Of a stretch of DNA of 64,000 bases, positions 2,170 through 61,549 are shown piece after piece. The DNA lies in IMG/VR virus record IMGVR_UViG_3300032309_001318, positions 20,540 through 84,539 of that record, one strand, 5' to 3'. Within the stretch, counting starts at the first letter, position 1. Every line of letters starts with the position of its first letter. Under the pieces are notes generated by a model. It had not been told where the DNA came from, made no database searches, and saw only the letters and a program-made list of their open reading frames with translations. Made by a program: the position numbers and the translations under genes. This stretch comes from a virus.

Positions 2170-2716
2170 TTCAATTAATAACAAAACTATGCTTTCCGAG
2201 TATAATAAAATGATCTCTCAGATGCACGAATATGTTTATAAATTTAATCCAGGAATTAAGCTAGGGTTTAAACCTAAAAAAGTTTCTTTAATTGATTATA
2301 AAACATTTAACTTTTTTGCAATGTATAACAAAAACATTCATATTCTATATAAAGAAATATCTGATTTAACAAAAGAATATTGCATTAAAAATGGAGTTAA
2401 TTTTGAAAGAAATTATTTTTATTTACTTGGCAATATAGTTAAAAAAGAAACTATTACATTAGACACATATCTAAATTTTGCACCTAATTATAAAACTACA
2501 TTTGTTGGATTTTATGTTATAGATTGCAATAAAGATCAAATTTTTATAAATGATGAAAAAATTGATTTAATTCCTGGACAATTAATATTTTTAGATTCAT
2601 CATCAAAGATATTGTTTAAAAAAATAAGTGATGGTTTGACAATACTATCATTTAATATCTCTCCGCTGGAGTATCTATACAGACAGTACTATCAGAAATG
2701 GATACCTTTAGCATGA
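2153..2716 (+). CDS. Degenerate double-stranded beta-helix protein, paralogue of the two 2OG-oxygenase-like genes
   Basis: 187 aa. The layout mirrors the proteins at 4885-5532 and 5526-6176: a helical N-terminal half with an Asn-Phe-Phe/Ile-Leu-Tyr-Lys segment, then a beta-rich half (FVGFYVIDCNKDQIFIND against GYYCVKAEPSTTYYK) and the same KWIP-type ending. The metal-binding HDH motif of its relatives is replaced by LNFAPN, and no distal His precedes the end, so Fe(II) binding looks lost. It may be a non-catalytic partner or scaffold. Homology is inferred from shared order and ending; overall identity is low. Its TGA overlaps the next ATG (ATGA). Confidence 0.55.
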   Translation: MIKNINSINNKTMLSEYNKMISQMHEYVYKFNPGIKLGFKPKKVSLIDYKTFNFFAMYNKNIHILYKEISDLTKEYCIKNGVNFERNYFYLLGNIVKKETITLDTYLNFAPNYKTTFVGFYVIDCNKDQIFINDEKIDLIPGQLIFLDSSSKILFKKISDGLTILSFNISPLEYLYRQYYQKWIPLA

Positions 2717-3432
2717 TTAAAATAGAATTTATTCCAAAATATAGGTTGTATAAAAAGGCATTCCCAGAGCCAGTAAGTGTTGCATCTAGCATACCAGAAT
2801 GGTGGAAGCATCAAGAAAGTTATTTAAATAATAATCAAGATATCCATAAAGGAACAATGATGTTGACAATTAAAAAATGCCAATCCATTTTTGACTCAAT
2901 GACATTTGGCTATTATTTAAAATGCCCAATGGATATATTTATAGATGCAACTGGAGATAAGATAAAAGTAGAATTGACATCTGAAATAATGGGTCTGCAC
3001 CAACAGTATATTCTTTCTCATCATTTAAAAGAGCAAATGTCCAAATACCCAATACCAGATTATTTTCACGAAGAAATTATTAGAATTCACCCAATGTGGT
3101 TAGTTAAAACAGAAGAGGGGCACAGCGCATTATTTATTTCTCCAATGCATGCAGAAGATTCCCCAATTAAAGCAATCTCTGGGGTCATAGACACAGACGC
3201 ATATGCATCAGATGGATACTTATCATTTTTTGTTAAAAAAGGATTTAAAGGAATAGTTAAACAAGGAACTCCAATTATTCAGGTAATTCCATTTAAAAGA
3301 GAAGACTGGGAAAGCTCAATAAGTGACGACAGGCAATCAGACACCAAGCTAAAAGAAAAAACTTTACAAGTTAGATCAGTATTTCAAAATGGGTACAGAA
3401 TGAAATTTTGGAAAAAGAAAACATATAGATGA
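2713..3432 (+). CDS. DUF6065-like phage protein (first of three)
   Basis: 239 aa from the ATG at 2713, whose ATGA overlaps the previous stop. An ATG at 2698 would add five residues but is buried in the KWIP codons of the upstream gene. Signature stretches are SIPEWWK near the N-terminus, a central block on a ligand-like theme (FDSMTFGYYL), and a C-terminal beta segment FISPMHAEDSPIKAISGVIDTD, then FKGIVKQGTPIIQVIPFKREDW. That closing pattern (hydrophobic-GTP-I-Q-IPFKRE-W) recalls uncharacterised aquatic-phage proteins and, more loosely, DUF6065. Function is unknown. Clear paralogue of 4135-4884. Confidence 0.55.
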   Translation: MIKIEFIPKYRLYKKAFPEPVSVASSIPEWWKHQESYLNNNQDIHKGTMMLTIKKCQSIFDSMTFGYYLKCPMDIFIDATGDKIKVELTSEIMGLHQQYILSHHLKEQMSKYPIPDYFHEEIIRIHPMWLVKTEEGHSALFISPMHAEDSPIKAISGVIDTDAYASDGYLSFFVKKGFKGIVKQGTPIIQVIPFKREDWESSISDDRQSDTKLKEKTLQVRSVFQNGYRMKFWKKKTYR

Positions 3433-4157
3433 CCAGTAAGGCTGTTAATAGAGTGCCTTATGAAGCAGAATCATGGTCTCTAATGTCAACAATGACTTTT
3501 GAGCAAATATGCAATACGTCTAATTTGTTCCCAAAGTGGAAAGAATGGCAATATGTTAAATCTGATCCTGCCTATAAACAATCAATTCTAAAACCAGTAA
3601 ACATGTATGCTCATCATTTTTCTAACCCACCAGAGATAATAAAGAATTCTAAAAATAGTTTAACAATTAGATATTATAGCTACGGGGATATATTAATTCA
3701 AATAGCTGATCCGTTGCTAGGGCATAGGGGGGTATTCAAATCAAATCCAATTAATAGCTTTTTTTATGCAACCGATAAATGCTGGCTGCGTCAATTTTAT
3801 CCATCAGAAAATCAATACAATATCGTAGATCAGAATGCGATTTCTAAAAGAATTTTTAAAATTTATATTCCTTGGTTTTTAGATATGGACGTAGATTATT
3901 CAATTAAATGTAATATAGAAAATCCTTCATTAAAAATAATAGAAAAAACGGATTTCTTTACAAAAACAAATGAGAATGTTATAATAAAAGAAGCAAATTT
4001 TGTTGATTTTTATTTTACAAATTCTAAAAATCATATGGAAGACAATATTTGCGGATTAATAAAAAGAGGTACGTATTTATTTGATATAGAAATAAACACA
4101 GATAAAAAAACTATTAAAAAAATTATAAGGGAATATGAAAAAAGAATTAGTAATTAA
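3429..4157 (+). CDS. Hypothetical protein, possible divergent member of the DUF6065-like trio
   Basis: 242 aa; the start ATG overlaps the previous TGA (ATGA). It sits between two clear paralogues and has the same size. Its C-terminal segment (NICGLIKRGTYLFDIEI) can be laid over FKGIVKQGTPIIQVIP and FIGIIPKGTPLFQMIP, and its N-terminus has LFPKWKEW where the relatives have IPEWWK or LPEWYK. The remaining sequence is very divergent, so relationship is a suggestion only. It may be a duplicated and re-purposed copy. No catalytic motif is seen. Confidence 0.5.
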   Translation: MTSKAVNRVPYEAESWSLMSTMTFEQICNTSNLFPKWKEWQYVKSDPAYKQSILKPVNMYAHHFSNPPEIIKNSKNSLTIRYYSYGDILIQIADPLLGHRGVFKSNPINSFFYATDKCWLRQFYPSENQYNIVDQNAISKRIFKIYIPWFLDMDVDYSIKCNIENPSLKIIEKTDFFTKTNENVIIKEANFVDFYFTNSKNHMEDNICGLIKRGTYLFDIEINTDKKTIKKIIREYEKRISN

Positions 4158-4884
4158 ATTTACGCCAGGATTTTCAATTAATCCTGATGACTTAAACAAC
4201 GGACTAATTGTTGAGCCAGAAGAGTCTAAAAACCATCTTCCAGAATGGTATAAAAAACTTTCTAGATTTTATAAGTCTAACCATATCAGCAAGCTTCATC
4301 CAGTTAATGATAGAGGAACCGATGGAAGCGCTGCTTCGACAAAGCTATGTATGCCATTTTTTGACGCATTAACTTCTGGATATATGTACACACTAGACTA
4401 CGATCTTCATGTTAACCAAGACAAAAACGGATTTCCAGTACTTTCCTGGGAAGGACAGAACATGATAGTAGACAAAAGATTAATGACAGACGTCCCAGTC
4501 CCAACACACCATCACCCATTACATTTTGGCTGGAAGGTAAACTGGTATTCGGAAACACCAAAAGGATATTCTTTATTAATAACCCATCCGTTAAATAGAC
4601 ATGATTTACCATTTACCACCCTTAGTGGAATAATAGACTCCGATTTATGGCACACACCAGTATTTACATCCTTCTTCCTAAAAAGGAACTTTATTGGTAT
4701 AATACCTAAAGGAACACCTCTATTTCAGATGATTCCAATTAAAAGAGAAGGTTGGGCTTTGGAGATAGACTATTCGGTCAAGGGGAAAGAAATGAATCAA
4801 ATTAAAGATGAAAAAAGAAGGTCTTCAATTTATGCCTATTATAAAAATATAGTATGGCAACGTAAACAGTATAAGGGAAAATAA
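4135..4884 (+). CDS. DUF6065-like phage protein (third of three)
   Basis: 249 aa. It shares with 2713-3432 the order: HLPEWYKKL near residue 33, a FFDALTSGYMYTLDYD block (FDSMTFGYYLKCPMD in the relative), a His cluster (VPTHHHPLHFGWK), then LLITHPLNRHDLPFTTLSGIIDSD and FIGIIPKGTPLFQMIPIKREGW. The family is seen in aquatic phages, from memory, without a known activity. The start at 4135 overlaps the previous gene by 23 nt; the aaggga just upstream is closer than ideal. The paralogues are embedded in an oxygenase and glycosyltransferase cassette, so a role in the same pathway is possible. Confidence 0.6.
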   Translation: MKKELVIKFTPGFSINPDDLNNGLIVEPEESKNHLPEWYKKLSRFYKSNHISKLHPVNDRGTDGSAASTKLCMPFFDALTSGYMYTLDYDLHVNQDKNGFPVLSWEGQNMIVDKRLMTDVPVPTHHHPLHFGWKVNWYSETPKGYSLLITHPLNRHDLPFTTLSGIIDSDLWHTPVFTSFFLKRNFIGIIPKGTPLFQMIPIKREGWALEIDYSVKGKEMNQIKDEKRRSSIYAYYKNIVWQRKQYKGK

Positions 4885-5532
4885 ATGATTAATAATATGC
4901 AAATGAATCAGCCAACAGGTAAAGAGCATAAATTTTTTGAAAGATATTTAGACAATGACCTAGGCCAATTAGCAGAGTTTTTACAGAACCAATATTCTAA
5001 TATGGAAAACTTAAATCTCACTGGCATAACAAAGGTGACAGAGAGAGATCACTGGCTATCATCAGACAGCGTCTCTACTATAAAATGGAGGGAATATAAT
5101 GTTTTTCAATTTTATCATCCATCAATACATAAGCTATATAAAAACCTTGTAGAAATGGTTAAAGAAGCTTGTGAGTATTATGAAATTGATTTTGAAAAAC
5201 AACAATACATGATTCAAGGCTGGTTTAATATTAATTATAACGACAAAGGAAAGCTAGACTGGCACGATCACGGTGGACCGTATGCTCCATATTTTCACGG
5301 ATACTATTGCGTAAAAGCAGAGCCATCTACAACGTATTATAAAGTTTTTGGTAAAGAAGTTGATAATCACAATAAAGACAACAGGCTTATCATATCAGAA
5401 ATGGGACATCCACATGCAATGGGATCTTGGGACTGGGAAGGCCCTAGAGTAACAATTGCATACGATATAGTTCCATTAAAAAGTTTAATAGCAAACAAGG
5501 CACATCCACAACATTGGATACCAATATGTTAA
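4885..5532 (+). CDS. 2OG-Fe(II) oxygenase-like protein (double-stranded beta-helix)
   Basis: 215 aa, ATG directly after the previous stop, with aaggga upstream. The metal site is visible: H127-D128-H129 in a LDWHDHGG stretch, a distal His (H175 or H177) in MGHPHAMG and R188 in a RVTIAYD strand, the order expected of 2-oxoglutarate/Fe(II) dioxygenases that hydroxylate a substrate with O2 and 2-oxoglutarate. The neighbouring YFHGYYCVKAEP strand is typical of TIGR02466-like phage oxygenases. It ends in HWIPIC and overlaps its paralogue. The substrate is unknown; neighbouring prolyl-hydroxylase-like and glycosyltransferase genes make a protein or sugar substrate plausible. Confidence 0.7.
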   Translation: MINNMQMNQPTGKEHKFFERYLDNDLGQLAEFLQNQYSNMENLNLTGITKVTERDHWLSSDSVSTIKWREYNVFQFYHPSIHKLYKNLVEMVKEACEYYEIDFEKQQYMIQGWFNINYNDKGKLDWHDHGGPYAPYFHGYYCVKAEPSTTYYKVFGKEVDNHNKDNRLIISEMGHPHAMGSWDWEGPRVTIAYDIVPLKSLIANKAHPQHWIPIC

Positions 5533-6176
5533 ATAAACCACAAAAATTTTTTGAATCATATTTAAATAATGATACGCAAGCACTATCAAAATATTTATAT
5601 AAAATAAACGATGAAATTATTAAAGAAAATTCTTTAAATTTATCTAATGAGGTTTTAGATAAATATAAAAATTTACCAGGCGCAGCAACAAAAATTGGAA
5701 TAAATCATTATAATATTTTTATGTTTCCAATCGATGAGATATATAACCTATATTGTGAATTAAAAAATCTTACAAAAAAAGCATGTGAATATTATGAAAT
5801 AGATTTTAATTTTGAAAACTATGTAATACATGGCTGGTTTAATTTTGACTATAAGTCTACCGAGAATAAGGTCGATCCAGTAAAAAATCCAGAGCAACTT
5901 CATGATCATTTTGGAGGAACTGGCATACCACATTTTCACGGGTACTATTGTGTAAATGCCGAGCCATCCATAACATACTATAAGCTAGATAAAAATAATA
6001 ATGATTTATTTGAAAATGTTAATAAAAATAATAGAGCAATTATTTCCGAAACTGGCTACCCCCATGCTAGAGGAGATTGGCAACAAGACCAAGCAAGAGT
6101 AACAATTGCATACGATATTGTTCCGTTTAGAGAGATTAGCAATAGTAAATCTATGAAATGGATACCATTCAAATAA
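5526..6176 (+). CDS. 2OG-Fe(II) oxygenase-like protein, tandem paralogue
   Basis: 216 aa from the ATG at 5526, which lies inside the previous stop region (ATGTTAA). An alternative ATG at 5514 adds four residues. It is a close relative of the preceding gene: KACEYYEIDF, IHGWFNFDY, then H126-D127-H128 in QLHDHFGG, HFHGYYCVNAEPSITYYK, and the distal H180 and R191 in YPHARGDW...RVTIAYDIVPF. All proposed Fe(II) and 2-oxoglutarate ligands are kept, unlike in the 2153-2716 copy. The two intact copies differ in the insert before the HDH motif, which may reflect different substrates. It ends in KWIPFK. Confidence 0.7.
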   Translation: MLNKPQKFFESYLNNDTQALSKYLYKINDEIIKENSLNLSNEVLDKYKNLPGAATKIGINHYNIFMFPIDEIYNLYCELKNLTKKACEYYEIDFNFENYVIHGWFNFDYKSTENKVDPVKNPEQLHDHFGGTGIPHFHGYYCVNAEPSITYYKLDKNNNDLFENVNKNNRAIISETGYPHARGDWQQDQARVTIAYDIVPFREISNSKSMKWIPFK

Positions 6177-6991
6177 TGGAAAATATTGGTATATGCATTT
6201 ACAGCTATCAAAATAAAAATTTATTTAAAACTGTATCTGAAATTATAGACAAATCTAGTCAAAAAAATATGTTATATTTTTACATTATTGATCAAAATAA
6301 TGTAGACAGAACTAGATCCCTAGACCAACCAGATTTTTATGCATCAATTGTTTATAAATATGTTACGTGGGACTCTATTAAAAGCCCAATTGAATATAAG
6401 CGGGATGCATTTAAGTCACTGAATAAAAAATATTATATGCAAATTGGAGACGATGTTTCATTAGCTAAAGATTGGGACATCCATGCAGTTGAATTTTTAA
6501 AGAATAATAAAAACTCAATTTTATCTGGAAATTCTACGGTTACCTTAAAAAATAAAAATTGGTTCATGCTAGAGCCAGAAAGAGTACCATCTTCAAATTT
6601 TAATAAAATAAATTATATAGACAGAAATTTTATATTTGCATTGTCTGAAGATTTTGCAATAATAAATCAACCAACTCACTTAAAATACTTTGGAGAAGAA
6701 GAAAGTATTTCAATAGATTTAATTAATAGTGGCGTAGATATTTATAATTTTCCAGACGAATACATATCAATTAATAAAAATTCAGTAGAGGATAAATATA
6801 CCCCATTTTCTTTAACCCATAACTATAATCAATTTATTGAAAAATATTCAAATGAAATTCAAAAAAACTTTAATATAAATTTAATGCAGCTACCGTTTGA
6901 AGATAACGATGTTGCTTACGACACTGGCCAGTCTCAAATAGATAGAATGGGCGGATTAAGATATCTTGACAGGATTAAGGAGATCAGGTAA
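6176..6991 (+). CDS. GT60-like (polypeptide hydroxyproline GlcNAc-transferase type) glycosyltransferase
   Basis: 271 aa from the ATG at 6176, overlapping the previous TAA by one base. An upstream ATG at 6158 lies in the paralogue's WIP codons. Features of the GlcNAc/GT60 family (PF11397) can be followed in order: an N-terminal ICIYSYQN strand, IIDQN at 37-41, WDSIKSP at 65-71 ahead of an Arg, MQIGDD near 88-93 followed by W100-D101, and FGEEESISIDLINSGVDIY. In characterised members the DxH/DxD-type motif binds UDP-sugar and the enzyme glycosylates hydroxyproline of Skp1. Two prolyl-4-hydroxylase-like genes follow directly. Family assignment is by motif; acceptor and sugar are unknown. Confidence 0.65.
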   Translation: MENIGICIYSYQNKNLFKTVSEIIDKSSQKNMLYFYIIDQNNVDRTRSLDQPDFYASIVYKYVTWDSIKSPIEYKRDAFKSLNKKYYMQIGDDVSLAKDWDIHAVEFLKNNKNSILSGNSTVTLKNKNWFMLEPERVPSSNFNKINYIDRNFIFALSEDFAIINQPTHLKYFGEEESISIDLINSGVDIYNFPDEYISINKNSVEDKYTPFSLTHNYNQFIEKYSNEIQKNFNINLMQLPFEDNDVAYDTGQSQIDRMGGLRYLDRIKEIR

Positions 6992-7533
6992 TGTTAATAA
7001 AAATAGTAGAAGATTTTATATCAGAACAAGATGCATTTTCTCTTATGGAAGAGATGCAATCGCCGTCAAAAATAAACCCGTATCCAGAATACTATAAAGA
7101 TAGAAACGGCGGAACTGCTTTCCCATATAACAATAGGGTAATGGATATACTTAAAAAATATTCAGTAAGAGCAAACCACATTCAGAAAGAATTTTTTAAC
7201 TTAAAAGACAAAGTAATTGTTACTAAGGCTTTTGGCTCGTGGTGGCAGCCAGGACAAAGTGGAAGTCCTCACATAGACGCAATTGAAAAAGAACCATTCA
7301 TAGAATATAGCACCGTAATTTATTTAAATGACGAGTACGAGGGCGGAGAGATATATTTTCCTAAACAAGCATTTTCTTTAAAGGCCAAAAAGTATTCTGC
7401 TATATTTTTCCCAGGAAATGATTATCAATATATTCATGGGGTTAAAGAAATTACTTCTGGCAGTAGGTATACAGCCCTCTATATGCAATCAACCAAGCAA
7501 GAGTTCGTAGACCCAGATTTTAGGGAGTGCTAA
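6991..7533 (+). CDS. Prolyl-4-hydroxylase-like 2OG-Fe(II) dioxygenase
   Basis: 180 aa; ATG overlaps the previous TAA by one base, with aggag upstream. Textbook P4H layout: H94-x-D96 in SPHIDAIEK, a YLNDEYEGGEIYFP strand pair (the E/GG turn is characteristic of P4Hc, SM00702), distal H149 in YIHGVKE and R159 in GSRYTALYM, which would hold 2-oxoglutarate. Size fits a single catalytic domain. Expected reaction: hydroxylation of a peptidyl proline or another substrate using O2 and 2-oxoglutarate, with succinate and CO2 released. It follows directly on the GT60-like gene. Many aquatic phages carry P4H-like genes, mostly with unknown substrates. Confidence 0.8.
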   Translation: MLIKIVEDFISEQDAFSLMEEMQSPSKINPYPEYYKDRNGGTAFPYNNRVMDILKKYSVRANHIQKEFFNLKDKVIVTKAFGSWWQPGQSGSPHIDAIEKEPFIEYSTVIYLNDEYEGGEIYFPKQAFSLKAKKYSAIFFPGNDYQYIHGVKEITSGSRYTALYMQSTKQEFVDPDFREC

Positions 7534-7535
7534 TA

Positions 7536-8189
7536 ATGCAATATCAAGAGTTGGCTTTAGGCGTTGTGTATTATAAAAATATTATAAAAGATCCCAATGA
7601 ACTAATTAATAAAATAGAGTCTTTAGAAGAAAAAAGAAGCCTACAAAAAGACTATAGGTCACAATCAGTAAAGCCTTGGCAAGCATGGGACTATGATCAC
7701 GGCAATAAAGAAAAAACAATATTCTGTTGGCAAAAATTTTTACCAAAGCCAAATGATATAGATGTTAATGATTATTTTTATAAAGAACAACACGAAATAT
7801 CTTCTGAGTTATTTAATGGTTTAGAAGATGGATTAAAACATTATTTTTCATTATATCCATATGCTGAAAAAAATATTAAATCTAGAGAAAAAACAATGCA
7901 CCTATTAAAATATAAAGAAAGCGGATTCCTACCAGCCCACTCAGACCATGGTATAAGCAGTAGAGTTTTATCGGCACTTCTTTATTTAAATGACGATTAT
8001 GAAGGTGGCAACATAAGATTCCCGCATTGTAATATTGACATGAAGCCAGAAGCTGGAAGCCTATTGTTTTTCCCATCAAATTTTGTTTACGTTCACGAAG
8101 TTGATGCGGTAACAAGCGGAACAAGATATTCATTGCCAAACTGGTATCATAATAGAAAAAACGCATACTACTCAGACGGGACAGAATAA
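7536..8189 (+). CDS. Prolyl-4-hydroxylase-like 2OG-Fe(II) dioxygenase, second copy
   Basis: 217 aa. I choose the ATG at 7536 because agggag lies eight bases ahead; a GTG at 7527 is possible but has no better site. The catalytic core is intact: H135-x-D137 in PAHSDHG, LLYLNDDYEGGNIRFP, distal H187 in VYVHEVDAV and R197 in GTRYSLPNWY. An N-terminal extension of about 100 residues compared with the preceding gene may bind substrate. Only the core motifs are shared with its neighbour, so it is an old duplicate or an independent acquisition. It ends one base into the SDR gene. Confidence 0.8.
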   Translation: MQYQELALGVVYYKNIIKDPNELINKIESLEEKRSLQKDYRSQSVKPWQAWDYDHGNKEKTIFCWQKFLPKPNDIDVNDYFYKEQHEISSELFNGLEDGLKHYFSLYPYAEKNIKSREKTMHLLKYKESGFLPAHSDHGISSRVLSALLYLNDDYEGGNIRFPHCNIDMKPEAGSLLFFPSNFVYVHEVDAVTSGTRYSLPNWYHNRKNAYYSDGTE

Positions 8190-11042: not shown

Positions 11043-12626
11043 ATGGAGTTCATGAACGAAGACCCTAGCGTCTCAGAAACTATTGACATATCAAACTCTG
11101 CAGACTGGATAAAGTTTAATAATAAAGAAGTTGTATTAAGTGATGATCCATTTAGCATTGAAGGCGAAGAGTTAAAGAAAGTTAATGGACTAAGCCCAAC
11201 ATTTCGTAGAAAAATATCTAGAGAGTTTCAAAAGCGTTTTATAGGACAAGAAGGAACTGGAACACAACAGAATCTACTACAACAAGCAGTTACTGGATAC
11301 GCAATGTTTGACCTTGTCCAACCAGTCTATAATCTTGAATATCTTTCAAAAATTTATGAGATATCCCCATACAACTACTCAGCAATTAATGCAAAGGTTG
11401 CTAACATTGTTGGCCTTGGATACTCTTTTGTAGAAACAAAAAAAGCTAACGATGCTTTAGATAATATTACTGATAAAAAACAATTAGAACGTGCTCGACG
11501 TAAATTAAATAAACTTCGTCAAGATTTAGATTATTGGCTAGAGGAAACAAATGAAGAAGAAACATTTACAGAAACATTAGTAAAAGCTTATACAGATTTA
11601 GAGGCTACTGGCAATGGATACATTGAAATTGGAAGAACCGTGTCTGGGAATATTGGGTACATCGGACATATACCATCCAAGACAATGCGGGTACGTAGAC
11701 TTCGTGACGGATTTATACAACTTCTTTATGGCAAGGCAGTATACTTTAGAAACTTTGCAGATCAAGAAACTCCTAACCCAATTTCTGGAGCAGAAGATCG
11801 TCCAAATGAAGTTATTCATTTAAAGAAATATACGCCAATGAACAATTACTACGGAATCCCAGATATAATTGCTGCACAAACTGCAATGGCAGGAAATGAA
11901 TTTTCTGGAAAATATAACTTAGATTATTTTGAAAATAAAGCGGTTCCAAGGTATATAATTACAGTAAAGGGTGCAAAGCTTTCACCAGAATCCGAACGTA
12001 AACTACTAGAATTTTTCCAAGTTGGGCTAAAGGGTAAAAACCATAGATCACTCTATGTACCACTTCCAGCGGATACATCTGACTCTAAAGTTGAATTTAA
12101 AATGGAACCTATTGAGGCAAACCCACAGGAGTCTTCATTTAATGTATACAGAAAAGCAAATAGAGATGAAATCCTTTTAGCACACAGAGTCCCAGTAAAT
12201 AAAATTGGAGTTCCAGAAGGAGTCAGCCTAGCTTCAGCAAGAGATGCAGATAAAATGTTTAAAGAACAAGTTTGTAGGCCAGCTCAAGATATTTTAGAAA
12301 AGAAAATAAATAGAATTATTTCTGAAAAAACAGATGCATTAATGCTTAAATTTAATGAATTGACTTTAACAGACGAAGATACACAATCTAAAATTGATGA
12401 AAGATATTTAAGAATGCAGGTGATTACCCCCAATGAAGTTAGAATTAGAAAGGGTATGATACCGATGGACGGTGGAGATGAGGTTGTTGATTTGCAGGCA
12501 CAAGCAGCCGAAATCAAGGCTCAGGCATTAAATACCAGAAATAGAACTCAGGAAAGATCGGCCAATTCACCAGATAGTTCTGGGGAAGCCAGAAATCCAA
12601 AAGGTGAGGGTAGAGTCACAGCTTAA
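11043..12626 (+). CDS. Phage portal protein
   Basis: 527 aa; the ATG follows the previous TAA and is preceded by ggagg. Recognisable portal features (HK97/PBSX portal families): an LEYLSKIYEISPYNYSAINAKV helix, an ATGNGYIEIGR strand, a VIHLKKYTPMNNYYGIPDIIAA segment and an FENKAVPRYIITVKG stretch, then a clip-like region and a C-terminal basic, disordered tail. It would form the dodecameric ring at the capsid vertex through which terminase pumps DNA. The following gene is the prohead protease, the usual order. A terminator and new promoter separate the two. Confidence 0.88.
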   Translation: MEFMNEDPSVSETIDISNSADWIKFNNKEVVLSDDPFSIEGEELKKVNGLSPTFRRKISREFQKRFIGQEGTGTQQNLLQQAVTGYAMFDLVQPVYNLEYLSKIYEISPYNYSAINAKVANIVGLGYSFVETKKANDALDNITDKKQLERARRKLNKLRQDLDYWLEETNEEETFTETLVKAYTDLEATGNGYIEIGRTVSGNIGYIGHIPSKTMRVRRLRDGFIQLLYGKAVYFRNFADQETPNPISGAEDRPNEVIHLKKYTPMNNYYGIPDIIAAQTAMAGNEFSGKYNLDYFENKAVPRYIITVKGAKLSPESERKLLEFFQVGLKGKNHRSLYVPLPADTSDSKVEFKMEPIEANPQESSFNVYRKANRDEILLAHRVPVNKIGVPEGVSLASARDADKMFKEQVCRPAQDILEKKINRIISEKTDALMLKFNELTLTDEDTQSKIDERYLRMQVITPNEVRIRKGMIPMDGGDEVVDLQAQAAEIKAQALNTRNRTQERSANSPDSSGEARNPKGEGRVTA

Positions 12627-51374: not shown

Positions 51375-51517
51375 AATTATACCAAAGCCATCCTTGGCTA
51401 TATAGAAGATATATTGTACAAAAAAAGACAGTTACAGAAATTGCTATTGAGTGTGCGGTTTCTCCAATGACAATACAAAGATATCTAGAACAGTTTGGAC
51501 TAATTAAAAAGCGATGA
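51371..51517 (+). CDS. Small helix-turn-helix protein
   Basis: 48 aa, ATGA-coupled at the 5' end and overlapping the next start by four bases. TVTEIAIECAVSPMTIQRYLEQFGLI is a compact recognition helix-turn-helix like those of Hin-type recombinases or sigma-region-4-like proteins; the flanking YRRYIVQKK is basic. Probable DNA-binding regulator. Confidence 0.6.
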   Translation: MKLYQSHPWLYRRYIVQKKTVTEIAIECAVSPMTIQRYLEQFGLIKKR

Positions 51518-52209
51518 ATATTGCATATAAAATATTTCATTTACCAAGAGACTATGATAGAAATAAATTAGTTGAAAATGTTCATTCTAATTTGCTTAAA
51601 AATATAAAGATCTTGGATACAGATACTATTAAAATTTCATCATATGATGAATATGTTAGCTTTAAAAATCAAAACTTAGATTTTAATATAGATTTTAATG
51701 GATATAATTTAGAAAATAGGCAGGGCTGGAGATATGGAGAAGTTGGCATATGGGCAAGCAACTGGCTAGCATGGAAAAATTTTATTGATTCTGATTATGA
51801 CTATTTAATATTAATGGAAGACGATATTGTTTTATATGAAAATTTTTTAATTGAGTTAGAAAAATATATGAAGCAATTGCCAAAAGGATTTGATGCATTC
51901 CATGCATTTTGTCCAGCAGATCAAAATCACAAGTATAACGCTTCGTTAGATGTCTCAGATGAATTATGTTCATCTTATCAAGATTGGTCTGCTGCTTGCT
52001 ATATAGTAAGTAGGACGGGTGCTCAAAAAATGATACATTTTGCAAGCAACGGTATAAATTTACCATTAGATTGGTTTATGTTTAGACAAAAAAATTTATT
52101 AGAGGTTTTCACGCTAAAGCCAGACGCTAAAAGAATTTGTGACATATTGCCAATACAATCAACATTTCAAACAAAAGAAGATAGGAAGCCACTAAATGGG
52201 ATACTCTGA
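51514..52209 (+). CDS. Glycosyltransferase family 25-like protein
   Basis: 231 aa. Sequence features of GT25/LPS-type glycosyltransferases: WASNWLAWKNFIDSDYDYLILMEDDIVLYENF (ExDD donor-site acidic cluster), the CPADQNH region, CSSYQDWSAACYIVSRTGAQKMI and a LPLDWFMFRQ motif. Such enzymes add a hexose to a lipooligosaccharide or protein hydroxyl. A methyltransferase and a GT32-like gene follow with overlapping starts, so the three probably act on one glycan. Confidence 0.75.
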   Translation: MNIAYKIFHLPRDYDRNKLVENVHSNLLKNIKILDTDTIKISSYDEYVSFKNQNLDFNIDFNGYNLENRQGWRYGEVGIWASNWLAWKNFIDSDYDYLILMEDDIVLYENFLIELEKYMKQLPKGFDAFHAFCPADQNHKYNASLDVSDELCSSYQDWSAACYIVSRTGAQKMIHFASNGINLPLDWFMFRQKNLLEVFTLKPDAKRICDILPIQSTFQTKEDRKPLNGIL

Positions 52210-52714
52210 TCCAACAAATAAGCCTTGGACTAAGGACAAAATAGTCGAACTAAATCCAAAAACAGTTCTTGATGTTGGGGCTGGTCAAGGCGTGTATCTT
52301 GATTTAATTAGAGATGGACTTGGCGCTGGGGTAATAGTAAATGCAGTAGAAGTCTGGCAACCGTATATAGATCAATTTAATTTAGAAAATAGATACGATA
52401 AATTATTTGCTATGGATGTAAAAAACATGACAAACTTTGCCTATGACCTTGTTATTTTAGGAGATGTTCTTGAGCACATGTCTAAAGAATCTGCTGTTGA
52501 TCTTTGGGAAAGAATATCTAGACAAGCTAAATATGCAATTATATCTATTCCAATTATTCATTATCATCAAGATGCAATTAACGGCAATCCGTATGAAATT
52601 CATGTTGAAGAAGACTGGAACACTGATAGGGTGCTAAAAACATTTAAAAACATCATTGAACATAAAGAGTTTCCAATTACAGGAGTATTTGTAGCGAAAT
52701 TTGATAACCAATGA
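52196..52714 (+). CDS. SAM-dependent methyltransferase, class I
   Basis: 172 aa. Motif I VLDVGAGQGVYLDLI at about 24-38, motif II VNAVEVW, then AMDVKN and DLVILGDVLEHMSKESAVDLWERI (motif IV-like), all diagnostic of Rossmann-fold methyltransferases. Compact catalytic domain without a target-recognition domain, so it looks like a small-molecule or sugar methyltransferase, not a DNA methylase. Embedded between two glycosyltransferase genes, overlapping each by a few bases. Confidence 0.8.
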   Translation: MGYSDPTNKPWTKDKIVELNPKTVLDVGAGQGVYLDLIRDGLGAGVIVNAVEVWQPYIDQFNLENRYDKLFAMDVKNMTNFAYDLVILGDVLEHMSKESAVDLWERISRQAKYAIISIPIIHYHQDAINGNPYEIHVEEDWNTDRVLKTFKNIIEHKEFPITGVFVAKFDNQ

Positions 52715-53427
52715 TTCCAAAAATTATTTGGCAAACATATAAGGATCCGTACGACCAACTTCAGCCATATATGCTTGATGCAATTAATACATGGAAGACA
52801 TTAAATACAGAATATGAATATCGCTATATGGATGATGCTCAGGCTACTGAATTTATACTACAAGAATATGGTCAAGAGTGGCATGACATATTCGTAAGTC
52901 TTCCAGTCGGAGTAATGCGTGGAGACCTATGGCGATATATGATTATATATAAATATGGCGGAATCTATACTGATCTGGATACAGAATGCTTAAATCCAAT
53001 TAATGTATGGCTAAACGAAGACTATGAAATGATTGTTTGTCCTGAAACAGATATTCATTTTTGTCAGTGGACATTTGCTGCATCGGCTGGTCATCCTATA
53101 TTAAAATCAGTTCTAGATACAATTAAAGAAAAATTAAATAATCCAGAGTATGGATCACCACACTTTGTTCATACACATACAGGACCAACCATTTGGACAG
53201 AAGGAATATTAAATGCTTTAGATATTAAAGTTGATAATTTAATTACTGATGAACTATTGCTAAATTCTTCTGATAATGCTAAACTATATAAATTCCATTG
53301 CTATGGCGGAGATAATTGGCGGATATTCCATTTTATTGATGTTAAACATATTTATGGAAGCCAAAAATGGGATGACGGAAACTATATTCAATGGATTGAA
53401 GATCCACTAGTGAGAGGTACAAGATGA
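52711..53427 (+). CDS. GT32-like (DXD-sugar-binding) glycosyltransferase
   Basis: 238 aa. IPKIIWQTYKDP near the start, YRYMDDAQATEFI, then GVMRGDLWRYMIIYKYGGIYTDLDTECLNPI with DLD near residues 87-89 as nucleotide-sugar/metal site; HFVHTHTGPTIWTEG in the second half. These are the markers of PF04488-type (Och1/GT32) enzymes. Together with the GT25-like gene and the methyltransferase this forms a short glycan-modification operon. Donor and acceptor unknown. Overlaps the next gene by four bases. Confidence 0.8.
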   Translation: MIPKIIWQTYKDPYDQLQPYMLDAINTWKTLNTEYEYRYMDDAQATEFILQEYGQEWHDIFVSLPVGVMRGDLWRYMIIYKYGGIYTDLDTECLNPINVWLNEDYEMIVCPETDIHFCQWTFAASAGHPILKSVLDTIKEKLNNPEYGSPHFVHTHTGPTIWTEGILNALDIKVDNLITDELLLNSSDNAKLYKFHCYGGDNWRIFHFIDVKHIYGSQKWDDGNYIQWIEDPLVRGTR

Positions 53428-56109: not shown

Positions 56110-56354
56110 GTGAATATCAAGAAAAAGCAAAAGAATGCAAATGTTGTGGCAAGCATGTTCCACTTCCAACAGTATTAAAAGAATACAATGGAATGGTTGT
56201 ATGCCCAACTACATTTTCAAACATTGTTGAATATCAAAGAATATGGAATGCTATTGGATCTAGGCCACCTGGAAACATAAGAAAGCATTTTTCAGAGTAT
56301 GTACAACAAATAGTAGAATTGCATTTTATAGAAAACAAAAAAGATGAAAAATAA
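56106..56354 (+). CDS. Small zinc-finger protein
   Basis: 82 aa; ATGA overlap with the terminase gene. CKCCGKH near residue 11-17 and VVCPTTF around residue 32 give a C-x-C-C-x2-H plus C arrangement that could bind zinc. The C-terminal half is helical (VEYQRIWNAIGSRPPGNIRKHFSEYVQQIVELHF). Overlaps the next gene by 11 nt. Function unknown. Confidence 0.55.
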   Translation: MSEYQEKAKECKCCGKHVPLPTVLKEYNGMVVCPTTFSNIVEYQRIWNAIGSRPPGNIRKHFSEYVQQIVELHFIENKKDEK

Positions 56355-57336
56355 AAGAGCATCTTCCTGGCACGAAAATAATAATGATGTTTTTAGTAAA
56401 TTACAAAATAAAGAAACTGTAAATCTAATGTGGTCTTGTATTAATAACATAGAGCCAGAACAGCCAATGCTACTGCAAAATACATTGCGTTTAAACGAAG
56501 ACAGAATGTATTTTGATTTAGGCGATAATATAGAAAAAAGAATAAATACAGATGGACACAGGGGCCCAGATTTTATTAAAAATGTAGATATTTTATTTGC
56601 TGGATGTTCGCAAACCTATGGTTTAGGAGTTAAAGATGGGGCAATATGGGGGGAGATGGTAGCTAAAAATCTAGGCCTTAAATATAATAATGTGTCTTAT
56701 CGTGGAGGATCCGTTATGCAAATAGTTTATAACATTTTTAACTATTTTGAAAAATATGGTAATCCAAAATATATCCTATGTGCATTACCATCGTTTGCCA
56801 GAACTCATGTATTTATAGATTCTGAAATATTAACCTCAGCACCTCATAACAAAATATTAGAAAAAACATATGGATCCGACAAAGGACCTTATAGAGCAAT
56901 ACATCTTTCTAAAAATAGCAGGTACATAAAGCTTCCAGCCAAAGTAGAAGAAGTTTTTCCAAATGAACATAGAGTTTGGATTAACTTAATGTTTATTTCA
57001 ATGTTAGAAACATATTGTCATTCAAATAATATAAAATTACTATGGACAACATGGCTAGACGTATATGAAGATAACAATCAACAAATGTATGATAAATTTA
57101 AAAATTTTTTTGAATTATCAGAAGACTGGGACCAGACAATACCGCCAGACGGCATTTATCCAGAAAAAGAAAGCGTGTGCCATCAAAACTTTAAAGATAA
57201 ATATGAAAATTTTTTTCATAGGGGAACAGATTGGGATATTAGGGATCTTAAAGTTTGGGAAGGGCATTGGGGTGCCCACACACATATACACATATATGAA
57301 AATTTTATAAGAGAAATGAAAAAACTTGGACTATAG
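56344..57336 (+). CDS. SGNH/GDSL-hydrolase-like protein (first copy)
   Basis: 330 aa. Order of an SGNH hydrolase: NTDGHRGPDF lead-in (compare N-x-x-G-x-R-G-P), VDILFAGCSQTYGLGVKDGAIWGEMVA (nucleophile S89 in GCSQ, G), a YNNVSYRGGSVMQIVYNIFNYFEKYGNPKYILCALP segment (block with Gly and Asn) and a C-terminal D-x-x-H-like WEGHWGAHTHIH. Such enzymes remove or add acyl (often acetyl) groups on sugars or lipids. A paralogue lies 2 kb downstream, with a carbamoyltransferase between. Substrate unknown; surface-glycan decoration fits. Confidence 0.6.
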   Translation: MKNKRASSWHENNNDVFSKLQNKETVNLMWSCINNIEPEQPMLLQNTLRLNEDRMYFDLGDNIEKRINTDGHRGPDFIKNVDILFAGCSQTYGLGVKDGAIWGEMVAKNLGLKYNNVSYRGGSVMQIVYNIFNYFEKYGNPKYILCALPSFARTHVFIDSEILTSAPHNKILEKTYGSDKGPYRAIHLSKNSRYIKLPAKVEEVFPNEHRVWINLMFISMLETYCHSNNIKLLWTTWLDVYEDNNQQMYDKFKNFFELSEDWDQTIPPDGIYPEKESVCHQNFKDKYENFFHRGTDWDIRDLKVWEGHWGAHTHIHIYENFIREMKKLGL

Positions 57337-57423
57337 ATTTATTATTTATTTATACTATAAGGTTATTTATAAAATAAAAAAAATATTTATAAAACAGCCT
57401 AAGCAAAAAGATAGGTACATATA
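57337..57423. other. Very AT-rich spacer before the carbamoyltransferase gene
   Basis: 87 bases with almost only A and T, no ORF, no clear -10/-35 pair. It ends in an aggtacatat stretch that could serve as a weak ribosome site for the TTG start at 57424. No terminator hairpin is seen. Confidence 0.6.
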
Positions 57424-58863
57424 TTGATAATTTTAGGAATTAATGAAACTTCCCATGATGCTTCTGTATCTTTAATTAAAGATGGAGACATATTATTTTC
57501 TGGGCATGCCGAAAGATATAGTAAGCAAAAAAATGATTGGTTTACAAATGATAGTTTAATTAAAGATGCATTAGAGTACGGGTATCCAGATAAAATAGCC
57601 TATTATGAAAACAGATGGCTAAAGAAGGCCCGTATAGCCATTCATGGCGGGTTTGGTGGTGACAAGCCATACTTTCTTCAAACACCCCTTAAAAAAATTC
57701 CTAGGGCTTCCTTTGGGCATCACAAATCCCACGCAGCAGCAGGATACTACACAAGTAGTTATACAGATGCGGTTATTGTAGTTTTAGATGCAATTGGAGA
57801 ATTTAATACTTCTACGGTATGGGTGGGAGAAGGATCTAACATTAAACAAGTTTACAAACAAAACTACCCTGTAAGCTTTGGACTTTTTTATTCCGCATTT
57901 ACTCAGCTTATAGGGTTAATGCCAAATCAAGAAGAATACATTATGATGGGAATGGCTGGTTACGGAGATCCAAATAAGTATTTAAAAAAAGTTAATGAAT
58001 ATTTTCCAAGCATAACAAAACAAAAATACAATTTTCATAAAGGAATTACTGACTGGGGCTGGGTGTCAGACCAAGATAAATTTGATATTGCAGCCTCTGC
58101 TCAATTAATTTATGAACAAAGACTAATTGAATTTATGAATATGGCTAAATCAATAACTGAAAAAACAAATTTAGTTTTTATGGGAGGGTGTGCCCTTAAC
58201 TGCTCTGCCAACACATTGCTTTGGAAAATATTTGATAGCGTTTGGATTATGCCCAACCCAGGAGATGCTGGAAGTTCATTGGGAGCAGCAGCGTTATTGT
58301 ATGGCAAACATTTAAATTGGAATGGTCCATATCTTGGATATAATTTATCAGGGGAATATCCTGTTAATGAAATTGTTGATGAAATATTAAAAAATAAAAT
58401 AGTAGCAGTAGCAAACGGAAGGGCCGAATACGGACCAAGAGCATTAGGCAATAGAAGTATACTAGCGGACCCCAGAGACCCAGACATTAAAAATAAAGTT
58501 AATTTAATTAAACAAAGAGAAAACTTTAGGCCGTTTGCCCCAGTAATTATGGAAGAATGTGCTAGCGAATGGTTTGAAATGAATTTTAATTCACCATATA
58601 TGCAATATGCTGTAAAATGTAAAAAACCAGATTTAATACCCTCTGTTGTTCACATAGACGGCACGTCTAGAGTACAGACAGTAAACAAAGAACAGCATCG
58701 AGGATTGTGGCGTGTTTTAAATAAATTTTATCAAGAAACAGGTGTGCCAGTTTTATTAAATACTAGCCTAAATATAAAGGGTCAGCCACTTATTAATGAT
58801 AAAAATGATATCATTGACTGGCAGCAGCATTATAAGTATAATATACTAACTGGGCAACAGTAG
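57424..58863 (+). CDS. NodU/CmcH-family carbamoyltransferase
   Basis: 479 aa, TTG start. N-terminal ASKHA/Kae1-like domain: ILGINETSHDASVSLI, the iron-site H99-H-K-S-H103 in GHHKSHAAAG, EFNTSTVWVGEG, EEYIMMGMAGYG and FMGGCALNCSAN. C-terminal domain: GRAEYGPRALGNRSILADPRDP, KQRENFRPFAPVIMEE, HRGLWRVLNKFYQETGVPVLLNTSLNIKGQPL. All diagnostic NodU/TobZ segments are there; the length is a little under the usual 540-600. It makes carbamoyl-adenylate from carbamoyl phosphate and ATP and transfers the carbamoyl group to a sugar hydroxyl. Its stop codon lies inside the tRNA gene. Confidence 0.85.
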   Translation: MIILGINETSHDASVSLIKDGDILFSGHAERYSKQKNDWFTNDSLIKDALEYGYPDKIAYYENRWLKKARIAIHGGFGGDKPYFLQTPLKKIPRASFGHHKSHAAAGYYTSSYTDAVIVVLDAIGEFNTSTVWVGEGSNIKQVYKQNYPVSFGLFYSAFTQLIGLMPNQEEYIMMGMAGYGDPNKYLKKVNEYFPSITKQKYNFHKGITDWGWVSDQDKFDIAASAQLIYEQRLIEFMNMAKSITEKTNLVFMGGCALNCSANTLLWKIFDSVWIMPNPGDAGSSLGAAALLYGKHLNWNGPYLGYNLSGEYPVNEIVDEILKNKIVAVANGRAEYGPRALGNRSILADPRDPDIKNKVNLIKQRENFRPFAPVIMEECASEWFEMNFNSPYMQYAVKCKKPDLIPSVVHIDGTSRVQTVNKEQHRGLWRVLNKFYQETGVPVLLNTSLNIKGQPLINDKNDIIDWQQHYKYNILTGQQ

Positions 58864-58927
58864 CTTAGTTGGTTAAAGCCCCGAACTCATAATTCGGTAA
58901 CCGTAGGTTCGAGTCCTACCTGTTGTA
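58854..58927 (+). tRNA. tRNA with CAU anticodon (Met or Ile2)
   Basis: Full cloverleaf: acceptor GCAACAG/CTGTTGT (58854-58860 with 58920-58926; first pair G-U), D stem GCTT/AAGC with loop AGTTGGTTA, anticodon stem CCGAA/TTCGG and loop CTCATAA with anticodon CAT at 58888-58890, variable TAACC, T stem GTAGG/CCTAC with loop TTCGAGT, discriminator A58927, no encoded CCA. The anticodon stem lacks the three G-C pairs of initiator tRNA, so elongator Met or lysidine-modified Ile. Ten bases overlap the preceding CDS. Confidence 0.9.
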
Positions 58928-58939
58928 CAAGGAGATATT

Positions 58940-59254
58940 TTGGAAGACTCAGAAGAACAGTTTGACAGAGACCTTGAGTATTATATTGAAATAGGAGCTA
59001 TTGAAATATCTGGCGTTGATGAATACGGCGAAATAATTTTTAAAATTACAGACGAAGCAGAGGAGTTGGCCCCAGAACTATGGCAATCTCACAAAGACTA
59101 TATAGACAAAACGCTTCTTGATCTTTATGAAAAAGATTTAATATCTGTGGAATATAATGAAAATCTTGAAGCAACAATTACTTTAACAGAAGAAGCAAAA
59201 AAAATAGCAAAACAACATGGCCTGATTGAGACTGAGGAAAAAAATAATGAATAA
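58940..59254 (+). CDS. Small acidic phage protein, winged-helix-like
   Basis: 104 aa; TTG start at 58940 with aaggaga ahead, 12 bases after the tRNA. DLEYYIEIGAIEISGVDEYGEIIFKITDEAEELAPELW, then a helix (HKDYIDKTLLDLYEKDLISVEYNENLEATITLTEEAKKIAK). The strand-helix-strand repetition with IxLTEEA recalls winged-helix domains, and very similar small acidic proteins occur beside late genes of actinophages, from memory. Function unknown. Its end overlaps the second SGNH gene by eight bases. Confidence 0.55.
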   Translation: MEDSEEQFDRDLEYYIEIGAIEISGVDEYGEIIFKITDEAEELAPELWQSHKDYIDKTLLDLYEKDLISVEYNENLEATITLTEEAKKIAKQHGLIETEEKNNE

Positions 59255-60218
59255 AAATATTAACATATACAAAAAAGAAAACTTTTCTGGACTTCCATTT
59301 AATAAAGGATTAATTCGTTTTCAAATGCCAAACTCAAGTTTTAAATTAATGATACATGAAGAAAAGCTGGGCATCCCAGAAGATGACGAAATTACTTATA
59401 GTTATAATTCCGAAGGATTGCGGTCAGACGAATTCACAAACAATCATTCTGGAACACATGTTCTTTTTGCTGGCTGCTCTGAAACAGAGGGTCTTGGGAA
59501 TAAATTAGAAAATATTTGGGCAAATCAATTATATAAAAAAATTATAAATGAAGAGCCATGTTCTGGATTTTTTAACGTAGGAGTTCGGGCTGTTGGTATC
59601 TCTGCAATAAATAGGCAAATAGTTAGCTACATGCAAAAATACGGAAAACCAGATAATTTATTTGTTAACTATCCAGATTTTTATAGACTTTATAAATGGA
59701 ACGATATAAAAAAATTTTGGGAACAAAAAATTGGCTTAGAAACAATGGCTTCATATAACCTTAAAGATAAATTCTTTTTAAAAGAATTTAAAGATGCAAT
59801 AATTAATGACTCTGAGTCTTTTTTTATAGATGACAACTTGCCTGAAGAGGCAATGAAACAATCGGCAATAGCAAACGGGAAACTCATGATTCATGAATAT
59901 ATGAGTGATGAAAGAAAATCTGACTTTGTTATAAACTCAATTCATAATATAATGTTAATGGAACAGATTTGTAAGGTAATGAAAATAAATTTTTTGTGGG
60001 GAACTTGGGATCAATATGCTTCTGCAACTATCAGAGAAAGTGGTTTATTTAATAGCTATGTAGATATTGGTAATGTCAAAAATTTTTATAAATGGGCAGA
60101 AGAGTCTGGATACAATACAAAAGATCTGTCGGCCAGAGACCATGGGCATTCTGGAATTCCATATCATACATACTGGGCAGAACAATTTTTTAATTCATAT
60201 AAAGAAAATAAAAAATGA
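59247..60218 (+). CDS. SGNH/GDSL-hydrolase-like protein (second copy)
   Basis: 323 aa from the ATG at 59247 with gagg ten bases upstream; an upstream TTG (59226) would add seven residues. Same pattern as the copy at 56344: NSEGLRSDEF, then GTHVLFAGCSETEGLGNKLENIW (nucleophile in GCSE), NVGVRAVGISAINRQIVSYMQKYGKPDNLFV, and at the end a RDHGHSGIPYHTYWAEQF motif with Asp/His. Overall divergence from the first copy is large, so the duplication is old or they are independent members. It overlaps the next gene by four bases. Confidence 0.6.
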   Translation: MNKNINIYKKENFSGLPFNKGLIRFQMPNSSFKLMIHEEKLGIPEDDEITYSYNSEGLRSDEFTNNHSGTHVLFAGCSETEGLGNKLENIWANQLYKKIINEEPCSGFFNVGVRAVGISAINRQIVSYMQKYGKPDNLFVNYPDFYRLYKWNDIKKFWEQKIGLETMASYNLKDKFFLKEFKDAIINDSESFFIDDNLPEEAMKQSAIANGKLMIHEYMSDERKSDFVINSIHNIMLMEQICKVMKINFLWGTWDQYASATIRESGLFNSYVDIGNVKNFYKWAEESGYNTKDLSARDHGHSGIPYHTYWAEQFFNSYKENKK

Positions 60219-61051
60219 AATTTCATTGGATGCATAGGTTTGATTTTGGTAACACGCAAGATAAATTAATGGACATGGCATGGACTTTAGAAAAATCAAG
60301 AGCCTATTCTGTTCTTATGACCTACTCTATATCCTCACCAGACTATGTTCCCTTTTTGCAAAGCATGATGAGAGTATCAAAAAATCTTAAATTCATGATG
60401 GCGTTTAGGGCTTATACTATAAGCCCAGAGTATGCAATTAGATTTTTTAATACAATGAATATTAACGGCAAAAATAGAGTAACATTTAATTTAGTTGCTG
60501 GAAAAATGCTTGAAGATGAACAAAAAGAAGCAATAGATATGTATAATTTTGACGATTCTTTAATAAGTACTGTTGAAAAAAGAATAGAGCTTGCGGATAA
60601 GTGGGCAGATAAATTTTTTAACAAGATGGGTGATCAAGCGCCAATTTCTTATACAATTGCAAATTCTCCAATGACAATTGACTTGGCTAATAAATGGACA
60701 GACTATGCTATTATTAATGATAGTGGATTAAAAGAATCAAAATTAAAAGAATCAATTAATAAATTAAAAAATACTAAGATAGTATTAATTATTGACCCAC
60801 TTATTAGAGAAAACAAAGATGACCTAGACTCAGACATAGAATATCATTATCAATCATGGGCAACAAATGAAGGACTAAAACCCTCTATTTGGGAAAAAAG
60901 AGAGCATTTAATACGTGGTAGCATGGAAGAAGTTAAGCAGCAAATTAGAGACATATCTAAAAAATATGGGATAGATGACTTTATGATAGTAACCAGCCAA
61001 AAAGACATATCCAGCCTTTTGAAGCTTATGCAAGAAATGTCTGACTGGTAG
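60215..61051 (+). CDS. Luciferase-like flavin-dependent monooxygenase
   Basis: 278 aa; ATGA overlap with the previous gene. TIM-barrel luciferase-like (LLM, PF00296) features: SSPDYVPFLQSMMRVSKNLKFMMAFRAYTISPEYAIRFFNTMNINGKNRVTFNLVAGK, close to the SsuD/nitrilotriacetate-monooxygenase pattern (A-x-x-T-x-x-x-K/R-F, S/PEYA, the GR-V-x-NLV-G stretch). Shorter than many members. It would use FMNH2 and O2 on a small organic substrate. No flavin reductase gene is nearby. Unusual cargo for a phage; in this context the substrate may be a surface or nucleotide sugar, but no evidence says so. Confidence 0.7.
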   Translation: MKFHWMHRFDFGNTQDKLMDMAWTLEKSRAYSVLMTYSISSPDYVPFLQSMMRVSKNLKFMMAFRAYTISPEYAIRFFNTMNINGKNRVTFNLVAGKMLEDEQKEAIDMYNFDDSLISTVEKRIELADKWADKFFNKMGDQAPISYTIANSPMTIDLANKWTDYAIINDSGLKESKLKESINKLKNTKIVLIIDPLIRENKDDLDSDIEYHYQSWATNEGLKPSIWEKREHLIRGSMEEVKQQIRDISKKYGIDDFMIVTSQKDISSLLKLMQEMSDW

Positions 61052-61132: not shown

Positions 61133-61549
61133 ATGGTAACACAATTCGCTATGGATCTTTTCAATGATCCTTTTTTTATTGGCTTTAACAGAGAGTTAAG
61201 CCGTCTAAACAATGCACATAAGGTCAACTCACAGTCATATCCTCCATATGATCTTATTAAGCTAGATGAAGATACATATCGTATTTCTATTGCTGTAGCA
61301 GGTTTTGGCAAAGAAGACATAGATGTGTCAGTAGATAATGGAACTCTTATCATTAAGGGTGAGATTACAGAAGTCGCTGACGCAGAAGTGGTACACAAGG
61401 GTATTGCAAGCCGTAAGTTCACACGCTCATTTGCTCTTGGTGAGTACATGGAAGTGACTGGGGCAGATCTAAAGGACGGTATGTTAAATATTAATGTAGA
61501 TCGTATTGTGCCTGAAGAGAAAAAGCCAAAAACAATTAAAATAAAGTAA
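61133..61549 (+). CDS. Small heat shock protein (Hsp20)
   Basis: 138 aa. Alpha-crystallin domain from about residue 38: SYPPYDLIKLDEDTYRISIAVAGFGKEDIDVSVDNGTLIIKGE, then KGIASRKFTRSFALGEYMEVTGADLKDGMLNINVDR, typical of IbpA-like proteins; the C-terminal KTIKIK replaces the IxI motif. A chaperone holding unfolded proteins, common in phages of aquatic bacteria, including many cyanophages. Has its own promoter and leader, so probably expressed apart from the preceding operon. Confidence 0.88.
   Translation: MVTQFAMDLFNDPFFIGFNRELSRLNNAHKVNSQSYPPYDLIKLDEDTYRISIAVAGFGKEDIDVSVDNGTLIIKGEITEVADAEVVHKGIASRKFTRSFALGEYMEVTGADLKDGMLNINVDRIVPEEKKPKTIKIK

What the first reader, a model, noticed from the sequence alone, without database searches (positions are those of the whole stretch)
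56344..61051. Sugar-modification island of SGNH, carbamoyltransferase, SGNH and luciferase-like monooxygenase
Two SGNH-hydrolase-like genes flank a NodU-type carbamoyltransferase, followed by an LLM-type oxygenase. Carbamoyl and acyl groups on sugars are well-known decorations of capsules and secondary metabolites. The gene set could alter a host glycan after infection or decorate virion glycans made by the GT25/GT32/methyltransferase operon at 51.5-53.4 kb.
Basis: inference. Interest (0 to 1): 0.6.

Follow-up and report, generated by a model that had tools for sequence, protein, structure and literature searches.

The report
Phage carbamoyltransferase with variable SGNH partners
A virus of (probably freshwater) actinobacteria carries a sugar-type carbamoyl-adding enzyme flanked by two fast-diverging esterase-fold proteins, a gene team that recurs in many phages and some bacteria and probably decorates sugar chains inside the infected cell, while the neighbouring oxidoreductase is only a lineage-specific passenger.

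Summary
The four genes are real. CarbT (57424-58863) is a full NodU/TobZ-type O-carbamoyltransferase. The flanking genes at 56344 and 59226 are paralogous SGNH-fold proteins (26% identical). The gene at 60215 has an SsuD-like LLM fold.

The conservation test splits the group. SGNH+CarbT is a widespread module: of 77 SGNH clusters (60% identity), 56 have CarbT within 3 kb, and all 186 nearby SGNH-CarbT pairs lie on the same strand. It occurs in phages without a related terminase and beside glycosyltransferases in bacterial chromosomes; these CarbTs form one supported clade. LLM is not part of it: distant LLM loci have 0/28 CarbT.

CarbT tracks terminase divergence (78% against 80%) while SGNH partners differ drastically (21-30%). 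No signal peptides or membrane helices were seen, so a cytosolic substrate is likely. No thymidylate synthase or C5-methylase was found in relatives, which argues against 5hmC-DNA carbamoylation.

Best reading: a cytosolic O-carbamoyl/O-acyl glycan-decorating module of an actinophage. Virion and host target remain unresolved.

The parts
56344..57336 (+). SGNH1: SGNH-fold protein, 330 aa, GCSQTYG block I; start overlaps the stop of the upstream 82-aa ORF
   Evidence: ORF; motif; alignment; model and Foldseek
57424..58863 (+). CarbT: NodU/TobZ-type O-carbamoyltransferase, 479 aa, TTG start; its stop codon lies inside the tRNA-Met
   Evidence: junction sequence
58854..58928 (+). tRNA-Met (CAT), overlapping the last 10 nt of CarbT; the overlap is conserved in relatives
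58940..59254 (+). Small conserved ORF, 104 aa, function unknown; in another clade it lies upstream of CarbT
   Evidence: no family hit below E 0.01
59226..60218 (+). SGNH2: SGNH-fold paralog of SGNH1, GCSETEG block I and DHGH block V; TTG start at 59226, or ATG at 59247
60215..61051 (+). LLM: luciferase-like/SsuD-fold oxidoreductase, 278 aa, ATGA-coupled to SGNH2; adjacent but not part of the conserved module
51514..53427 (+). GT25 - methyltransferase - GT32 operon, a variable glycosylation slot
2698..8189 (+). Operon of two phrog_7084/DUF6065 genes, a GlcNAc-GT-like gene, two 2OG-Fe(II) oxygenase-type genes and others; its homologs lie directly upstream of SGNH-CarbT in other phages

Best explanation
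This is a cytosolic glycan-decorating module of a phage that infects Actinobacteria. CarbT makes carbamoyl-adenylate from carbamoyl phosphate and ATP in its C-terminal YrdC-like domain. It then moves the carbamoyl group to a hydroxyl of a sugar acceptor in its N-terminal metal-binding domain (inferred from TobZ/NovN-type enzymes). The two SGNH proteins act on the same acceptors by adding or removing O-acyl groups, and set which glycan or position is decorated (inferred). CarbT is the constant part and the SGNH genes are the interchangeable part. The decorated product is a glycan built in the cytosol, on virion proteins or on a lipid-linked or nucleotide-sugar precursor. The LLM gene is a separate oxidoreductase coupled to SGNH2 only in this lineage. 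Shown: gene identities, linkage, divergence pattern, absence of export signals. Inferred: substrate, direction of the acyl reaction, and target.
For: CarbT keeps the family's motifs: HHxSHA, GRAExGPRA and RExFRPFAP in 58/58 relatives. Its solved homologs are NovN, GdmN, a 597-aa carbamoyltransferase and TobZ, several of which carbamoylate sugars (own knowledge). SGNH linkage: 56 of 77 SGNH clusters have CarbT within 3 kb, 186/186 nearby pairs share a strand, and the LLM control gives 0/28. CarbT relatives fetched from bacterial genomes by CarbT sequence alone also have an SGNH neighbour in the same clade; Geodermatophilus and Reyranella add glycosyltransferases nearby, and the clade has support 100. 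Phage neighbourhoods: GT2, GT60, GT61, NTP transferases and an epimerase, against none of these glycosyltransferases listed for the control (shown lists are cut at 25 families). In L127, L134, L136 and L138 the homolog of the window's 2.7-8.2 kb glycan-type operon sits directly by SGNH-CarbT. Divergence: TerL 80%, CarbT 78%, SGNH 30/21%. No signal peptide or transmembrane signal by hydropathy. Host: WhiB in all 11 searched relatives of 85 kb or more.
Against: No substrate is known. SGNH folds are also used on lipids, thioesters and proteins. SGNH1 lacks the usual block V Asp (Trp at that column) and block III is not recognisable; a few family members have Glu for the catalytic Ser. The SGNH linkage was scored on loci found through SGNH, so the phage part of the tree is ascertained. 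One close clade has CarbT without SGNH (L030).
Confidence: 0.55

Rival explanations
1. Host-envelope remodelling: the module decorates cytosolic precursors of the host's surface polysaccharide so that the infected cell or its debris no longer binds phages (superinfection exclusion), rather than virion glycans.
For: Bacterial members of the CarbT clade sit in glycosyltransferase neighbourhoods of Geodermatophilus and Reyranella. Hypervariable SGNH partners fit variable host glycans.
Against: No transport or export gene was recognised next to the module, and all products look cytosolic. The related operon in the window (2.7-8.2 kb) lies beside virion structural genes (tail-type gene at 217, portal at 11043).
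Confidence: 0.25
2. DNA hypermodification: CarbT carbamoylates 5-hydroxymethylcytosine, as the MetaGPA phage enzyme does (PMC8670742).
For: Same Pfam domains as the characterised 5hmC carbamoyltransferase.
Against: In that study the DNA-acting enzymes co-occur with thymidylate-synthase homologs, and carbamoyltransferases of unmodified contigs lie by glycosyltransferases. No PF00303 in G000 or six relatives, including contigs of 111 and 116 kb. No PF00145 C5-methylase in ten records. Virus records may be incomplete.
Confidence: 0.06
3. All four genes form one pathway in which the LLM oxidises or hydroxylates the acceptor before carbamoylation.
For: ATGA overlap of SGNH2 and LLM, and the fixed order in this clade.
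Against: LLM relatives in 28 other phage clusters have no CarbT and one has an SGNH gene. Most distant SGNH-CarbT loci show no LLM in the held stretch. The LLM allele is exchanged independently (74% where SGNH2 and CarbT are 95%).
Confidence: 0.1
4. A small-molecule tailoring set (antibiotic-like or metabolic), not glycan polymer decoration.
For: Solved homologs are antibiotic carbamoyltransferases; one related clade carries a TipAS antibiotic-recognition protein in the SGNH2 slot.
Against: No core biosynthetic enzyme for a small molecule was recognised in the stretch examined. Neighbours in other phages are glycosyltransferases and sugar-nucleotide enzymes.
Confidence: 0.12

Closest known systems
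TobZ / NovN / NodU O-carbamoyltransferases
   Same: Both domains, family motifs, full-length match by profile
   Different: Shorter (479 aa), phage-borne, recurrent SGNH partners, substrate unknown
PHROG 1601 'Nol-like carbamoyltransferase' of cyanophages and pelagiphages
   Same: Same family, E 2e-108; glycan-type neighbours such as heptose and nucleotide-sugar genes in S-CAM1
   Different: Named cyanophage and pelagiphage proteins are about 27-32% identical; no SGNH gene of this family was detected beside those examined
5-hydroxymethylcytosine carbamoyltransferase (MetaGPA)
   Same: Pfam domains
   Different: No thymidylate-synthase partner
SGNH/GDSL esterases and O-acyltransferase-type SGNH domains (Est2A, TesA, AlgX)
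   Same: Fold and Ser block
   Different: No Pfam match; block III not recognisable; very fast divergence
SsuD/MsuD FMNH2-dependent alkanesulfonate monooxygenases
   Same: Fold (E 3e-13)
   Different: Shorter, 14-16% identical, phage-borne, substrate unknown

Membership tests
NodU/TobZ O-carbamoyltransferase | Carbam_trans N and C domains above curated cut-off | tested here: met
   127 and 191.7 bits against 24 and 27
NodU/TobZ O-carbamoyltransferase | HxxxH metal motif, PGDAG, YrdC-like ATP/carbamoyl motifs | tested here: met
   invariant columns; motif counts
NodU/TobZ O-carbamoyltransferase | O-carbamoyl transfer activity | not testable with these tools
   needs an enzyme assay
5hmC DNA carbamoyltransferase | thymidylate-synthase-type hydroxymethylase in the genome | tested here: not met
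   no PF00303 in seven records, some of them incomplete
5hmC DNA carbamoyltransferase | placement in the MetaGPA clade | not tested
   its sequences were not held
SGNH hydrolase superfamily | three-layer alpha/beta/alpha SGNH fold | tested here: met
   Foldseek top hits are SGNH proteins, although the model has mean pLDDT 66.5
SGNH hydrolase superfamily | block I Ser (GxSxT) | tested here: met
   both window genes; 125 of 135 family members
SGNH hydrolase superfamily | block V Asp-x-x-His and block III Asn | tested here: inconclusive
   SGNH2 has DHGH, SGNH1 keeps only His; block III not recognisable
Luciferase-like monooxygenase | SsuD/LLM fold | tested here: met
Luciferase-like monooxygenase | PF00296 above curated cut-off | tested here: inconclusive
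   window protein no; its 42% homolog L053 yes, 32.3 against 27.9 bits
Luciferase-like monooxygenase | FMN or F420 use | not testable with these tools
   needs biochemistry

The most novel reading that the evidence does not exclude
The SGNH proteins are exchangeable specificity partners of a constant carbamoyltransferase: a two-part system in which phages swap acceptor-selecting SGNH subunits (some without the catalytic Ser) to follow changing glycans. It is shared by phages and bacterial glycan loci, and no description was found in the literature held here.
Probability: 0.22. Interest if true: 0.72.

Novelty: new variant of a known kind. Interest (0 to 1): 0.5.

Why it matters
Phage carbamoyltransferases are common but read in conflicting ways: pyrimidine synthesis (PMC9146016), antibiotic synthesis (PMC5705922), or DNA modification (PMC8670742). 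A defined subfamily with recurrent SGNH partners, present in phages of Actinobacteria and in a few bacterial glycan loci, gives a testable glycan role. The contrast of a constant enzyme with variable partners points to an arms-race surface.

Tried and rejected
Searches for SGNH1, SGNH2 and LLM in 50,697 named phage records found nothing. Collagen-like Gly-X-Y repeats as acceptors for GT25/2OG enzymes were sought; no run of five or more was found in window proteins or the first 20 kb of the record. The DNA-modification reading was tested and disfavoured. Literature searches for SGNH plus phage carbamoyltransferase gave no relevant paper in the open-licence library held.

Full report
Setting. 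The window is the last 64 kb of an 84,539-base IMG/VR virus record. Its terminase is up to 65% identical to Streptomyces phages such as Francob. That phage shows the same backbone: Cas4-like exonuclease, RuvC-like resolvase, glycosyltransferases and a nucleotidyltransferase, terminase, then a tRNA-rich stretch. Related contigs carry WhiB, a gene restricted to Actinobacteria and their phages (PMC6802176); G000 itself lacks a hit but is incomplete. So this is most likely a phage of Actinobacteria. The freshwater origin is an inference from my knowledge of the IMG sample numbers.

Observation. The genes are present as described. CarbT is unambiguous. The two SGNH genes match no Pfam or PHROG family, but are paralogs, carry GCSxTxG and SGNH1 folds like SGNH esterases. 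The LLM is supported by structure and by a homolog that passes PF00296. Junctions are tight: SGNH1 starts inside the preceding ORF's end, SGNH2 and LLM overlap by ATGA, and the CarbT stop codon lies within a tRNA-Met. That tRNA overlap recurs in ten of the fourteen relatives scanned.

Is it a unit? Close relatives show that CarbT, the small ORF, LLM and mostly Hsp20 follow the terminase, while the SGNH slots vary. SGNH1 can be replaced by a zinc-dehydrogenase-like gene (L044) or be absent (L047). SGNH2 can be replaced by a TipAS-domain gene plus a 2OG oxygenase (L027, L030). A wide scan with the SGNH alignment then gave the key result. Among 77 SGNH clusters at 60% identity, 56 have CarbT within 3 kb and 36 within 300 bases, and all 186 pairs within 1.5 kb share a strand. 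LLM loci taken the same way give 0 CarbT in 28 clusters. SGNH-CarbT occurs at other genome positions and in contigs of 152-154 kb with no relative of this terminase. It therefore appears to move as a module; the LLM does not belong to it.

Bacterial relatives. A scan of GTDB genomes by CarbT alone found the nearest bacterial-titled proteins at 45-46% identity. Five of the seven nearest have an SGNH gene directly beside CarbT, and a sixth, L218, has a GDSL-family protein directly downstream. Geodermatophilus amargosae and Reyranella have glycosyltransferases nearby. In a tree of 81 rows these and the phage proteins form one clade (SH-aLRT 100; 23 of 27 rows SGNH-adjacent by the profile). The phage rows were partly chosen through SGNH, so the rows fetched by CarbT are the fair test. 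Some contigs titled as bacteria (L220-L222) look like phage DNA.

Pattern of change. Where terminases are 98% identical, CarbT is 96% and the SGNH partners 83% and 63%. Where terminases are 80%, CarbT is 78% and SGNH 30% and 21%. dN/dS for SGNH is mostly 0.1-0.3 (0.58 at very low dS) against 0.04-0.14 for CarbT. The SGNH genes are therefore functional but diverge and are swapped quickly. Some family members lack the catalytic Ser.

What it does. CarbT keeps the family motifs. Its solved homologs carbamoylate sugars or macrocycle hydroxyls of antibiotics (substrates from own knowledge). Neighbours of the module in other phages include GT2, GT60 and GT61 glycosyltransferases, NTP transferases and an epimerase. 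The control set showed none of these glycosyltransferases in its listed families; both lists are cut at 25. A window operon about 50 kb away (2.7-8.2 kb: two phrog_7084 genes, a glycosyltransferase-like gene, two 2OG-oxygenase-type genes) has its homologs directly beside SGNH-CarbT in L127, L134, L136 and L138. No protein has a signal peptide or membrane helix by hydropathy, so the acceptor is probably cytosolic: virion proteins, glycan precursors or nucleotide sugars. DNA is disfavoured because the known DNA-acting carbamoyltransferase needs 5hmC, and no thymidylate-synthase homolog or C5-methylase was found.

Conclusion. The LLM part and the special tie to the 51.5-53.4 kb operon are not. 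Substrate and target remain open.

Noticed in passing
58854-58928: tRNA-Met whose first 10 nt are the last codons and stop of CarbT; in relatives such as L044, L047 and L075 the coding overlap reaches about 23 nt.
   Followed up: partly
2698-8189: Operon of phrog_7084/DUF6065 pair, GlcNAc-GT-like gene and 2OG-oxygenase-type pair that sits next to SGNH-CarbT in other phages (L127, L134, L136, L138).
   Followed up: partly
51514-53427: GT25-MTase-GT32 slot is replaced in near-identical relatives by GT2 or GT32 plus a nucleotidyltransferase (L017, L011, L009).
   Followed up: partly
61133-61549: Hsp20 allele is 96-99% identical to that of a more distant clade (L021, L027, L030) but about 53% to otherwise 98-99% identical phages (L003), a sign of allele exchange.
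   Followed up: no
L018:9525-10262; L021:9379-10128; L044:13957-14691: Short SGNH-family paralogs with GCExT (Glu for catalytic Ser) and no C-terminal His block, elsewhere in related phages.
   Followed up: no
L027:6857-7315: TipAS antibiotic-recognition domain protein in the SGNH2 slot of a related phage clade.
   Followed up: no
L044:4276-5211: Zinc-dehydrogenase/quinone-reductase-like gene in the SGNH1 slot.
   Followed up: no
60215-61051: SsuD-fold LLM relatives are frequent in other phage contigs without CarbT, sometimes two per locus (L185, L189, L207).
   Followed up: partly
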